The notes beneath the pieces are model-generated. The model saw nothing but the letters and a program-made list of their open reading frames with translations, did not search any database and was not told where the DNA came from. DNA of 64,000 nt, taken from Alicyclobacillus tolerans. GTDB taxonomy: Bacteria; Bacillota; Bacilli; Alicyclobacillales; Alicyclobacillaceae. Position 1 is the first letter of the stretch. Each line of letters begins with the position of its first letter. Positions 7,063 to 9,727 of this stretch are shown piece after piece. Position numbers and translations under genes: made by a program. The DNA lies in assembly GCF_001447355.1 (NCBI RefSeq), contig NZ_JXBW01000001.1:1-64000 (forward strand). The letters run 5' to 3'.

Positions 7063-7836
7063 TCACGGCGCGCGCTTTGGAAACGAATCTTTCGCTACGA
7101 TCTCGCGGGCGCCGGTCACCTCGAGAACCGTTCCGTTCACTTCCTGGCTGTCCTCGCGCAGAAACCATTCCACTGCGCGTGCAACATCCTCGCCGACCGG
7201 CGGCCGCAACCCTTCCTCCGTTCGCTCAGCGGCGACATCTTCAATCATCCGCATCTTGTCCTCACCGCGAATGTCCCCAGGGCAAACCATGTTTGCGGTA
7301 ATTCCATATGTGCGCTCTTCGCGCGCGATCGACCGTGTAAGTGCCGCCAACCCGGACTTCGCTGCGGCATACGCCGCCCGATAACGCCAGCCACGCGCTT
7401 CGCCAGCTCCTTCGTAGCCCACCGTAACAAACCGGCCAAACCCCCGCGCGCGCATGTCGTGGACAACTTCCCTATACAGCCAAAAAAAGTTCGTCAAGTT
7501 CCCGTGCATCATACGCTGCCACATCTCTTCATCGTAATCGGCCAACGGTTTGCGTTCGAAAACAAAGGGCCCGAAATTATGAACCAGCGCATCAATATGG
7601 GAAAATTGCTGTTTTGCTTGCGCAAGCGCATCGAGCACAGACGCTCGATCGAATAAGTCACAGGAAATGGCGAGAACACCGCGCCCCTGTTCCGCGACAT
7701 CTGCCGCGAGGCGCAGTGCTTCTTCCTGACTCTTGCCGTATGTAAAGGCTACGTCCCAGCCGGCCCGTGCAAGCCTTAACACCATCGCGTGCCCGAGACC
7801 TTTGCCTGCCGATGTGATAAACGCGGTCTTCGCCAA
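7063..7836 (-). CDS. SDR-family oxidoreductase, atypical active site
   Basis: A 257-residue short-chain dehydrogenase/reductase resembling FabG-like 3-oxoacyl reductases. The cofactor motif is TSAGKGLG (8-15, first Gly replaced by Ser) and the usual NNAG is HNFG. The Tyr-x3-Lys pair is intact (Tyr156, Lys160 in AAYAAAKSGL), as is the N113 region (GNLTNFF). The catalytic Ser about 13 residues before the Tyr is missing: the segment reads TVGYEGAGEARG. Substrate is unknown. Start is TTG at 7836 after TAGGAGG. The IS110 element begins about 20 bases upstream, so its native promoter may have been displaced. Confidence 0.82.
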   Translation of the reverse strand: MAKTAFITSAGKGLGHAMVLRLARAGWDVAFTYGKSQEEALRLAADVAEQGRGVLAISCDLFDRASVLDALAQAKQQFSHIDALVHNFGPFVFERKPLADYDEEMWQRMMHGNLTNFFWLYREVVHDMRARGFGRFVTVGYEGAGEARGWRYRAAYAAAKSGLAALTRSIAREERTYGITANMVCPGDIRGEDKMRMIEDVAAERTEEGLRPPVGEDVARAVEWFLREDSQEVNGTVLEVTGAREIVAKDSFPKRAP

Positions 7837-7889
7837 GACTTGTCCTCCTAGTATATTGATGTCACGTACTCCAAAGAGTTTTGAGATAA

Positions 7890-8070
7890 AATTCTCGTAG
7901 TGGTCGGGGTACTACGATGCCCTCCTTGGGACCATTGGTTCTCGACTAAAAGAGTGCAGTCCCCGCCTTGCGAGTGTTTACGAATGAGCTGGATGTTGGA
8001 GGGTTTGATCCTGTCTCCGAATCTCAAACTAGGTTGTACATCGCAAGGTTGTGCGGATCCGACCCATTTG
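7890..8070 (+). ncRNA. Candidate IS110 bridge RNA
   Basis: The non-coding left end can fold into three consecutive stem-loops. First, TCGTAGT/ACTACGA (7895-7901 with 7911-7917). Second, GGGAC/GTCCC (7928-7932 with 7959-7963) enclosing a 26-base loop. Third, CCTTGCGA/TCGCAAGG (7966-7973 with 8041-8048), extended by TGT/ACA past one bulged base, with an inner GTTTGA/TCAAAC stem (8003-8008 with 8024-8029). A 5' stem-loop followed by two internal-loop stems is the layout described for bridge RNAs of IS110 recombinases. Ends and guide segments are inferred, not demonstrated. Confidence 0.55.
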
Positions 8071-8082
8071 GAGGTACGTGCA

Positions 8083-9258
8083 GTGTATTTTGTTGGTATT
8101 GATATCGGCAAACGCAATCATGAAGCCTGTATCATCGACTCAGCAGGTCAAATACAAGGCAAGACATTACGCTTTCCGAACACTCAGGCCGGTGGCCAGA
8201 AGCTCATTCAGTGGATGAAGTATGTTAATTCCGACTTATCCTCCACAGAAGTGGCCCTAGAGGCCACAGGTCACTACTGGCTGGCACTACACTCGTTTCT
8301 CCGTAAACACGGAATTCGAGTACGTGTCATCAATCCCATTCAGTCGGATGCGTTTCGCAACCTGTACATTCGACAGACCAAGAATGACGCGAAAGACGCA
8401 TTCATCATCGCCGAGGTATTGCGCTTTGGACGGTACACCACGACAGAACTGGGCAGCGACGAAATTATTGCCCTGCGACAATTGAGCCGATTCCGGTTCA
8501 GCCTGGTTGACGTCATTTCCGACCTGAAGAGACAGGTTATCAGCGTCCTGGACATGTTATTCCCAGAGTATGAGCAACTCTTCTCCGACCTGTTTGGCAA
8601 GACATCCTCCGAGCTCTTGATGGAATACACCACACCAGAGGAAATCCTTGCAGTCGATACCGAAGAACTGGCGGCCTTCATCGCCAAACACAGCCGGAAT
8701 CGCCTGGGTCTGGACAAAGCCGAAGAACTCAAATCTGTCGCCGCCTCGTCATTCGGCATTGACACGGCACTGGATGCGTACCGACTGCAATTACGCCTGC
8801 TTCTCCAGCAGATTCGCTTCACCGAGGAGCAATTGGAATTCCTCAATGCCGAGATCGAAAAGCGGCTCAAAGCTTTGGATACGAATCTTGTTACGATTCC
8901 GGGCATCGGTCCCATCTTGGCTGCTGCCATCCTTGGCGAAATCGGAGACATCTCCCGATTCCCAACCGGTGTGAAACTCGTTGCTTTTGCCGGGATCGAT
9001 CCGTCGGTTCGTCAATCCGGTGAATTTACCGGAACGCACAACCGAATGTCCAAACGAGGCTCGCCTTACTTACGACGGGCGATTTGGCTTGCCGCAAATG
9101 TCGCCAAAGTATACAACCCAATCCTCAAGGACTTTTACGAACAGAAACGGGCTCAAGGCAAACATCATCTTGCAGCAACGGGCGCTGTAGCGCGAAAACT
9201 AACATACATCATTTATGCCGTATTGCGTGACAAGAAGCCATACGAGCCAATCGCGTAG
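8083..9258 (+). CDS. IS110-family transposase (bridge-type recombinase)
   Basis: A 391-residue DEDD recombinase. The N-terminal RuvC-like domain starts YFVGIDIGKRNHEACIID, with the first catalytic Asp, and continues with VALEATGHYW and RQTKNDAKDAFIIAEVL (the DAKDA motif). A coiled-coil middle section leads to the C-terminal Transposase_20 domain: IPGIGPILAAAILGEIGDISRF, FAGIDPSVRQSG and SKRGSPYLRRAIW, containing the conserved serine region. GTG at 8083 is eight bases after GGAGG; the frame stays open upstream only because it crosses the leader. No stop or frameshift is present, so it looks intact. It lies between the SDR and the Trp-rich protein gene. Confidence 0.93.
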   Translation: MYFVGIDIGKRNHEACIIDSAGQIQGKTLRFPNTQAGGQKLIQWMKYVNSDLSSTEVALEATGHYWLALHSFLRKHGIRVRVINPIQSDAFRNLYIRQTKNDAKDAFIIAEVLRFGRYTTTELGSDEIIALRQLSRFRFSLVDVISDLKRQVISVLDMLFPEYEQLFSDLFGKTSSELLMEYTTPEEILAVDTEELAAFIAKHSRNRLGLDKAEELKSVAASSFGIDTALDAYRLQLRLLLQQIRFTEEQLEFLNAEIEKRLKALDTNLVTIPGIGPILAAAILGEIGDISRFPTGVKLVAFAGIDPSVRQSGEFTGTHNRMSKRGSPYLRRAIWLAANVAKVYNPILKDFYEQKRAQGKHHLAATGAVARKLTYIIYAVLRDKKPYEPIA

Positions 9259-9285
9259 GATAATGAATTGGACTGAATATTCAAC

Positions 9286-9304
9286 CCTGTCTGTCTCTGA
9301 CAGG
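9286..9304 (+). terminator. Hairpin after the IS110 transposase
   Basis: CCTGTC (9286-9291) pairs with GACAGG (9299-9304) around a 7-base loop, 28 bases past the transposase stop. No clear T-run follows, so termination is only a possibility; it may instead be part of the right end of the element. Confidence 0.35.
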
Positions 9305-9409
9305 CTTATATAGATGCGCCCAAAAATCACTTCCCTTCATAGGTCTTAGAACTCAAAAGGGTACTTGACATTAGATAGCTGGTCTTTTACGCACACCTAT
9401 GTAAAGTAA

Positions 9410-9432
9410 GAGCCGGGTGACACACCCGGCTC
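9410..9432 (-). terminator. Strong terminator overlapping a stop codon
   Basis: GAGCCGGGTG (9410-9419) and CACCCGGCTC (9423-9432) form a perfect 10-base stem with a 3-base loop. On the minus strand it is followed by TTACTTTAC. The TGA of the 98-residue gene (9433-9431) is inside the stem. Confidence 0.75.
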
Positions 9433-9727
9433 ACCACCAGTAGGGTCCCCACCACGGGCCCAAAGCCCATGCTGCCGCCCATGGAATGAAGAAAAATGGC
9501 CAGATCCACCAAGCAGACTGCACATCCAATTCAGTTGCGCCTTGATCCAAGATCTGCAGATTGACCTCATCTGAAGCGGCAGCAAGTCGCCCACCTTGGC
9601 GGTACATTTGCAAATACAATCCGCGATCATCGATGTGATGCAGAATGCCCCGGTGTACACCATAAGCGGTATGCACCTCAACCGGACGGCCAATGTGCTG
9701 CATCGCAAGCGCCCGAAGGTTTGCCAT
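9431..9727 (-). CDS. 98-residue protein, Sm-like N-terminus and Trp-rich tail
   Basis: No named family recognised. The first 60 residues (GRPVEVHTAYGVHRGILHHI, then DRGLYLQMY and VNLQILD) have the strand pattern of a small Sm/Lsm-like barrel. The last 26 residues are extreme: nine Trp plus Phe, Pro and Tyr (WWIWPFFFIPW, ending GPWWGPYWW), which would form a short membrane-inserting or interface-binding tail. The frame is open to 9745, but GAGGAGG sits seven bases before the ATG at 9727. It ends in a strong terminator and stands alone next to the IS110 element. Similar Trp-rich tails occur in small proteins of spore formers, but a spore role is a guess. Confidence 0.65.
   Translation of the reverse strand: MANLRALAMQHIGRPVEVHTAYGVHRGILHHIDDRGLYLQMYRQGGRLAAASDEVNLQILDQGATELDVQSAWWIWPFFFIPWAAAWALGPWWGPYWW

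What the first reader, a model, noticed from the sequence alone, without database searches (positions are those of the whole stretch)
7890..8082. Candidate bridge RNA in the left end of an IS110 element
The 215-base non-coding left end holds three successive stem-loops: a 7-bp hairpin (7895-7917), a 5-bp stem with a 26-base loop (7928-7963) and an 8-bp perfect stem extended to 11 bp (7966-8048) with an inner 6-bp stem. This is the order described for bridge RNAs of IS110 recombinases: 5' hairpin, then target-binding and donor-binding loops. The transposase is intact, so this could be an active programmable recombinase with its own guide.
Basis: partly seen in the sequence, partly recalled or inferred. 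Interest (0 to 1): 0.72.

Follow-up and report, generated by a model that had tools for sequence, protein, structure and literature searches.

The report
IS110 bridge RNA targeting ribosome-binding sites
A jumping gene in an Alicyclobacillus genome carries its own guide RNA, and that guide is built to recognise the ribosome-binding sites in front of genes, which is where the element tends to land.

Summary
The window holds an intact IS110-group element (7850-9383, CT core at both ends) with an IS621-type bridge RNA in its 233-nt left end. Empty sites in two congeners fix the ends. Across 16 left ends a 5' stem-loop, target loop and donor loop show compensatory changes.

The left target guide is 7918-7926, the right one 7945-7952. 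Over 26 distinct insertion sites the left guide matches its own target at 159 of 182 bases, against 110.8 +/- 5.2 when re-paired (0 of 20,000). Donor guides covary with the element ends across lineages.

The target is an antisense Shine-Dalgarno sequence. A gene start sits at the expected spacing at 13 of 29 sites (random 14.7%), at 17 of 20 sites of more distant lineages, and at 0 of 10 of a control IS110 family. Shine-Dalgarno targeting is known for IS900; its explanation by a bridge-RNA guide was not found in our searches. Transcription and activity are untested.

The parts
7841..7847 (+). Left target TGTCCTC; with the core it is the antisense of the Shine-Dalgarno AGGAGG (7844-7849) of the gene at 7063-7836
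   Evidence: empty sites L079, L080
7848..7849 (+). CT core, left copy
   Evidence: empty sites
7850..8082 (+). Left non-coding end, 233 nt, encodes the bridge RNA
7852..7857 (+). -10 TATATT of the promoter predicted to form in the circle (17-bp spacer after joining)
   Evidence: sequence only
7883..7896 (+). 5' stem-loop GAGA/UCUC (pairs invariant, so without covariation)
7905..7965 (+). Target-binding loop; stem 7905-7909 and 7911-7916 with 7955-7965; three pairs changed on both sides
7918..7926 (+). Left target guide TGCCCTC plus core CT; 6 of 7 with the target TGTCCTC
7927..7944 (+). Inner stem-loop of the target loop
7945..7952 (+). Right target guide ACTAAA plus AG for the core; 4 of 6 with the right flank TTTACG
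7966..8048 (+). Donor-binding loop; stems 7966-7973/8041-8048 and 7979-7983/8034-8038; inner stem-loop 7998-8015
7987..7992 (+). Left donor guide AGCTGG, same as the right end AGCTGG(T)
8028..8033 (+). Right donor guide ACT, core AG, handshake base G
8083..9258 (+). IS110 recombinase, 391 aa, GTG start, Shine-Dalgarno GGAGG at 8070-8074
9259..9383 (+). Right non-coding end, 125 nt, with -35 TTGACA at 9365-9370
9384..9385 (+). CT core, right copy
   Evidence: empty sites
7063..7836 (-). Short-chain dehydrogenase gene whose ribosome-binding site was the target; it points away from the element

Best explanation
This is an IS110-group bridge recombinase element with its guide RNA in the left end. 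After excision the joined ends would form a sigma-70-type promoter that transcribes bridge RNA and recombinase gene. The target loop pairs with a genomic site through the left guide 7918-7926 (bottom strand) and the right guide 7945-7952 (top strand). The donor loop pairs with the joined ends through 7987-7992 and 8028-8032. Exchange occurs at CT. The target guide reads as an anti-Shine-Dalgarno sequence, so the element enters ribosome-binding sites in one orientation, the gene pointing away from the recombinase. AGGAGG stays with the gene while the region upstream of it moves to the far side of the element. Shown here: ends, empty sites, structure, guide-target and guide-donor agreement, enrichment at gene starts. 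Inferred: transcription, RNA-protein binding, recombination, effect on the host gene.
For: Empty sites define the CT core. Structure: 97.5% of cells paired vs 94.2 shuffled, 8 pairs changed on both sides vs 3.0, 0 of 500 for each. Left guide: 159 of 182 at 26 distinct sites, re-paired 110.8 +/- 5.2, 0 of 20,000; one site per guide (13) 79 of 91 vs 50.8, 0 of 20,000; other registers 52-69. Right guide: 51 of 84 at 14 sites, re-paired 36.3, 1 of 20,000. Donor guides follow the ends: AGCTGG/AGCTGG, AGTTAG/AGTTAG, CCGTTGG/CCGTTGG; LE AGT, TGT, CGT with guide ACT, ACA, ACG. Junction TTGAC[AT], 17 bp, TAT[AG][GT]T in 22 of 22 copies examined with both ends. Gene starts: 13 of 29, 6 of 6, 4 of 5, 0 of 1, 7 of 8; control family 0 of 10. 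Catalytic region aligns with IS621.
Against: Single-sequence folding is not exceptional. Three of 26 sites fit the left guide poorly: L065 3 of 7, L063 and L066 4 of 7. Right-guide matches are modest. The L067 group (3 sites) needs a register shifted by two. 16 of 29 sites have no gene start by the criterion used. The six Enterococcus sites alone show no significant guide-target agreement (28 of 42 vs 26.2, 5950 of 20,000), and L201 and L181 of the second family fit at 1 and 2 of 7. No RNA or activity data.
Confidence: 0.93

Rival explanations
1. The left end is only a structured mRNA leader that regulates the recombinase; the protein alone chooses the site and guide-flank likeness is incidental.
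For: The structured region lies upstream of the recombinase ribosome-binding site, and a guide of the anti-Shine-Dalgarno type can by its nature pair with it (inference).
Against: Variation inside the loop follows each copy's own insertion site (0 of 20,000 re-pairings) and donor segments follow the element ends across lineages.
Confidence: 0.03
2. Guide and flank resemble each other because flank sequence was copied into the element (or the reverse), not because the guide chose the site.
For: The left guide and the left target read alike on the same strand, about 70 nt apart.
Against: The right guide matches the opposite strand of the other flank 1.4 kb away (1 of 20,000). Six copies in one genome carry one guide and lie at different sites that fit it at 4 to 7 of 7 (L060-L063, L070, L071).
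Confidence: 0.03
3. The concentration at gene starts is survivorship: insertions elsewhere were lost, and the guide has no special tie to ribosome-binding sites.
For: Of AGGAGG motifs in the window 15 of 27 already precede a start by the same criterion, so a guide to AGGAGG alone explains much of 13 of 29; 16 of 29 sites have no start.
Against: The guides themselves read as anti-Shine-Dalgarno in separate lineages, with a start at 13-14 nt at 7 of 8 sites of Bacillaceae relatives. A control IS110 family has 0 of 10; its ends were taken from aligned copies, not from empty sites.
Confidence: 0.15

Closest known systems
IS621 bridge RNA and recombinase (PMC11208160: abstract and sections 5, 6, 12 read; PMC11208158: passages)
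   Same: DEDD recombinase with PF01548 and PF02371, long left end, junction promoter, 5' stem-loop then target loop then donor loop, nine-base left guide including the CT core, handshake base after the donor-loop core
   Different: Guides read antisense Shine-Dalgarno; the published IS621-type targets named there are REP elements. Recombinase match to IS621 is remote (phmmer 95.5 bits). No experiment here.
IS900 of Mycobacterium avium subsp. paratuberculosis (PMC8141618: passages; Doran 1997: title only, in its reference list)
   Same: IS110 family; target motif CATGNNNNNNTCTCCTT, an antisense start codon and Shine-Dalgarno. A. acidoterrestris copies such as L060 have CATGACACCTCTCCTTT
   Different: Different element and host; its left end was not examined here, so whether its guide is anti-Shine-Dalgarno is a prediction
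seekRNA elements, ISEc21 and IS1111 group (PMC11187229: passages)
   Same: RNA from the non-coding region matches both strands of the target; IS110 type has that region upstream of the gene
   Different: IS1111 type has the long non-coding region downstream; here it is upstream (233 vs 125 nt)

Membership tests
IS110-group bridge-RNA element | Recombinase with DEDD (PF01548) and Transposase_20 (PF02371) domains and conserved serine | tested here: met
   the SG motif aligns with that of IS621
IS110-group bridge-RNA element | Long left end holding the RNA, shorter right end | tested here: met
   233 vs 125 nt
IS110-group bridge-RNA element | Short core shared by target and both junctions | tested here: met
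   CT; empty sites in G009 and G011
IS110-group bridge-RNA element | 5' stem-loop, target loop, donor loop conserved with compensatory changes | tested here: met
   the 5' stem-loop itself never varies
IS110-group bridge-RNA element | Left and right target guides match the target | tested here: met
IS110-group bridge-RNA element | Donor guides match the joined element ends | tested here: met
   right donor guide fits only in part in A. dauci family 2
IS110-group bridge-RNA element | Promoter formed at the joined ends | tested here: met
   by sequence, 22 of 22 copies with both ends; function not tested
IS110-group bridge-RNA element | RNA is made, bound by the recombinase and directs recombination | not testable with these tools
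   needs experiments
IS1111 group | Long non-coding region downstream of the transposase gene | tested here: not met
   right end 125 nt, left end 233 nt
IS1111 group | Sub-terminal inverted repeats of 7-17 bp | not tested
   no search for them was run
IS900-like Shine-Dalgarno targeting (works like) | Insertion in ribosome-binding sites, fixed orientation to the gene | tested here: met
   window site; 13 of 29 sites, random 14.7%; not all sites
IS900 itself | Sequence relationship to IS900 | not tested
   IS900 sequence was not fetched

The most novel reading that the evidence does not exclude
A broad set of IS110 elements in Firmicutes (lineages down to about a third amino-acid identity), and probably IS900, use bridge RNAs whose target guide imitates the anti-Shine-Dalgarno tail of 16S rRNA. 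One short guide thereby reaches many ribosome-binding sites in any host genome while sparing coding sequence; small guide changes shift the preferred variant, and one branch was reprogrammed in nature to the terminal repeat of a Mutator-type (PF00872) transposon.
Probability: 0.7. Interest if true: 0.6.

Novelty: new member of a known kind. Interest (0 to 1): 0.47.

Why it matters
Bridge recombinases are studied as programmable DNA-insertion tools. This family offers many natural guide-target pairs, including one guide at six sites of one genome, from which tolerated mismatches can be read. It also suggests a mechanism for an old observation, that IS900 inserts at translation-start signals: the guide RNA reads the Shine-Dalgarno sequence. 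That is directly testable by reading the left end of IS900.

Tried and rejected
[quoted passage not shown] My first choice of core, two bases upstream (note), fell to the empty sites. My first extraction of targets used a wrong core and was redone. The first pattern for the empty target of the L067 group matched 0 of 15 genomes because it allowed too few bases; the wider one matched 20 of 59.

Led nowhere: no Rfam family at gathering score in the window; no relative in viral contigs; 32 phage records with matches below 60% identity, not followed; the exact empty site TGTCCTCCTTTTA is not in this genome; 'near' search with the E. faecium element gave only 25 records that hold most of it; the right-donor-guide expression missed most rows, so that guide was counted on A1. 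Sulfobacillus L165 was fetched but its ends were not resolved, and it is in no count. L183-L187 are in no count.

Dropped before counts: L075 (site of L070), L064 and L073 (site of L059), leaving 29 of 32 rows. L067, L072 and L139 are left out of the 26-site test because of their shifted register; with them it is 165 of 203 against 114.0 +/- 5.5, 0 of 20,000. Not in A1: L133 and L134 (donor loop broken) and partial copies. Enterococcus: 8 loci fetched, 6 distinct sites (L189, L190, L191 are one). Bacillaceae relatives: 9 loci fetched of 40 listed (745 records), 8 distinct sites (L201 and L202 taken as one); 7 have a start at 13-14 nt, and for 5 of these it is the annotated start, while for L203 and L204 the annotated start lies elsewhere.

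Full report
OBSERVATION. The window is from an Alicyclobacillus genome (G000, 2.81 Mb in 55 contigs). The genus is inferred: the nearest named relatives of the element are in A. acidiphilus, A. suci, A. montanus and A. acidoterrestris. A single fold of 7886-8082 is no more stable than shuffled sequence (z -0.41), so stems alone prove little.

ENDS. Copies of the element align from about 7845 to 9386. The flanks are 95-98% identical in G009 and 81-89% in G011, and both lack the element. There the sequence reads CTTGTCCTCCT|TTT, where the window reads CTTGTCCTCCT|AGTATATTG ... GCTGGTCT|TTT. The core is therefore CT, at 7848-7849 and 9384-9385, and the element proper is 7850-9383, 1534 nt. The left end has 233 nt and the right end 125 nt.

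STRUCTURE. Sixteen left ends were aligned (A1). RNAalifold gives a 5' stem-loop 7883-7896; a target-loop stem 7905-7916/7955-7965 with inner stem-loop 7927-7944; and a donor-loop stem 7966-7973/8041-8048 with inner stem-loop 7998-8015. Counted on 40 of its 46 pairs (two small stems in the donor guide segments left out), 97.5% of cells pair (shuffled 94.2) and 8 pairs change on both sides (shuffled 3.0); 0 of 500 shuffles reach either value, and versions slid by 1-3 columns reach at most 49.2% and 4 pairs. The order 5' stem-loop, target loop, donor loop is that published for IS621 (PMC11208160: abstract and sections 5, 6 and 12 read; PMC11208158: passages).

TARGET GUIDES. Left guide and left target were read for 32 copies; 29 are distinct sites. 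Without three copies of a subgroup with a shifted register, 26 sites give 159 matches of 182. Re-pairing guides and targets gives 110.8 +/- 5.2, at most 135, 0 of 20,000 reaching the observed value. With one site for each of 13 guides it is 79 of 91 against 50.8 +/- 4.1, 0 of 20,000. Registers moved by -3 to +2 give 52-69. For the right guide, 14 sites give 51 of 84 against 36.3 +/- 3.4, 1 of 20,000. Of the 26 sites, 23 match at 6 or 7 of 7; the poor ones are L065 (3), L063 (4) and L066 (4). The target of L065, ACCTCTC, equals the guide of its sister copies in the same genome: its guide changed after insertion, or a sister's RNA worked in trans. The window's own copy matches at 6 of 7.

DONOR GUIDES AND HANDSHAKE. 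AGCTGG in the donor loop equals the right end AGCTGG(T), and ACT-AG complements CT-AGT of the left end. In Enterococcus relatives (46% aa identity) the right end AGTTAG goes with guide AGTTAG and the left end TGT with ACA. In Salimicrobium (49%) the left end CGT goes with ACG. In the second family of A. dauci the right end CCGTTGG goes with CCGTTGG, while its right donor guide fits only in part. The handshake base after the donor-loop core is G in 14 of 16 rows of A1, all with C at target position 7, and T in the two others (L067, L072), whose target has A there. This is one evolutionary event, but in the direction expected from IS621 (PMC11208158, passages). The joined ends give TTGAC[AT], 17 bp, TAT[AG][GT]T in 22 of 22 copies examined with both ends, TTGACA-17-TATATT in the window.

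WHAT IT TARGETS. The window target is the Shine-Dalgarno AGGAGG of a short-chain dehydrogenase gene (7063-7836, minus strand). Of ten further loci of this gene in the genus, nine read CTTGTCC[CT]CCTTT at this place and one CTTGTCCTCCTTC. I asked for a start codon 10-16 nt from the core with an open frame of at least 50 codons; this is not gene calling. This family: 13 of 29 sites, against 14.7% of random positions in the window and 12.8% in nine other loci, binomial P 1e-4; with ATG alone 8 of 29 against 5%. Enterococcus: 6 of 6 distinct sites; Salimicrobium: 0 of 1; second family of A. dauci (33% aa identity to the window protein): 4 of 5. Bacillaceae relatives of that family (58-69%): 7 of 8 distinct sites, all at 13-14 nt. 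A third IS110 family of A. dauci (31%): 0 of 10, its ends taken from aligned copies. Of AGGAGG motifs in the window, 15 of 27 meet the same criterion, so a guide to this motif would by itself give a share like the one seen. Guide-target agreement in the second family and its relatives is 68 of 91 against 48.3 +/- 4.4, 1 of 20,000; the six Enterococcus sites alone are not significant (28 of 42 against 26.2, 5950 of 20,000).

LIKENESS TO 16S rRNA. The guide of the L058 type contains GATCACCTCCTT, identical to the 3' end of 16S rRNA (the gene confirmed with Rfam in L195). The 16-base tail was found in 9 of 15 genomes of the genus, among them G004, which carries this guide (L064). It was not found in the drafts G000 and G001. 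The window's guide shares seven bases, CCTCCTT. None of the 32 left flanks reads GATCACCTC, so no insertion into a 16S gene was seen.

NATURAL REPROGRAMMING. In the L067 group the left guide TTACACCA fits its target at 8, 7 and 7 of 8 and the right guide reads CTTGACG against CTTGACG. Its empty target ...CACCACTTGACGGGACACTACC is repeated in 20 of 59 genomes of the order. It lies beside Mutator-family transposases (PF00872) in 4 of 4 neighbouring frames scanned, so I read it as the end of such a transposon (IS256 type, recalled).

HOW IT WORKS. Inferred from IS621: excision forms a circle, the junction promoter makes bridge RNA and recombinase, the two loops hold target and circle, and exchange takes place at CT. 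After insertion AGGAGG remains in front of the gene while whatever lay upstream is 1.5 kb away. The pattern scan showed no more promoter-like sites in 7700-9500 than shuffles (2 vs 1.7), so an outward promoter is not indicated.

LITERATURE. IS900, an IS110-family element, has the target motif CATGNNNNNNTCTCCTT (PMC8141618, passages). The title of Doran 1997, seen only in the reference list there, says that IS900 targets translation initiation signals. A link between bridge-RNA guides and Shine-Dalgarno sequences was not found in search listings 17, 38, 70 and 71, nor by term search in PMC11208160 and PMC11187229. The library lacks most subscription papers and preprints.

VERDICT. A genuine bridge RNA of the IS621 kind, with corrected anatomy, in a member of a set of IS110 elements guided to ribosome-binding sites. 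The kind is known; the guide-based account of Shine-Dalgarno targeting is the interesting part.

Noticed in passing
L065 (A. acidoterrestris plasmid NZ_CP080468.1 = G004:C2): Its target ACCTCTC fits the guide of sister copies on the chromosome (ACCTCTC), not its own guide (ATTCCCC): guide change after insertion, or use of another copy's RNA in trans.
   Followed up: partly
L067, L072, L139; empty targets L143-L162: A subgroup is aimed at a repeated sequence next to Mutator-family (PF00872) transposase genes, with a left guide shifted by two so that it does not cover the CT core.
   Followed up: partly
L059, L064, L073 left flanks: Copies in three genomes sit at what looks like the same site, beside a CGGACATATGTTCGG palindrome that resembles a LexA box (resemblance recalled, not searched).
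   Followed up: no
window 8070-8074: The recombinase's own Shine-Dalgarno is TGGAGG, whose antisense lacks the CT core; an anti-Shine-Dalgarno guide could pair with it in RNA, which might limit self-targeting or regulate translation (inference).
   Followed up: no
G000:C17:581-1177 and G000:C23:328160-328566: Only fragments of related copies remain elsewhere in this genome; the C23 fragment lies about 0.5 kb from a second, different IS110 gene (31% identity).
   Followed up: no
L188 (E. faecium plasmid NZ_OP378681.1): A distant relative lies at the start of a streptothricin acetyltransferase gene, in a stretch with aminoglycoside resistance genes on both sides.
   Followed up: no
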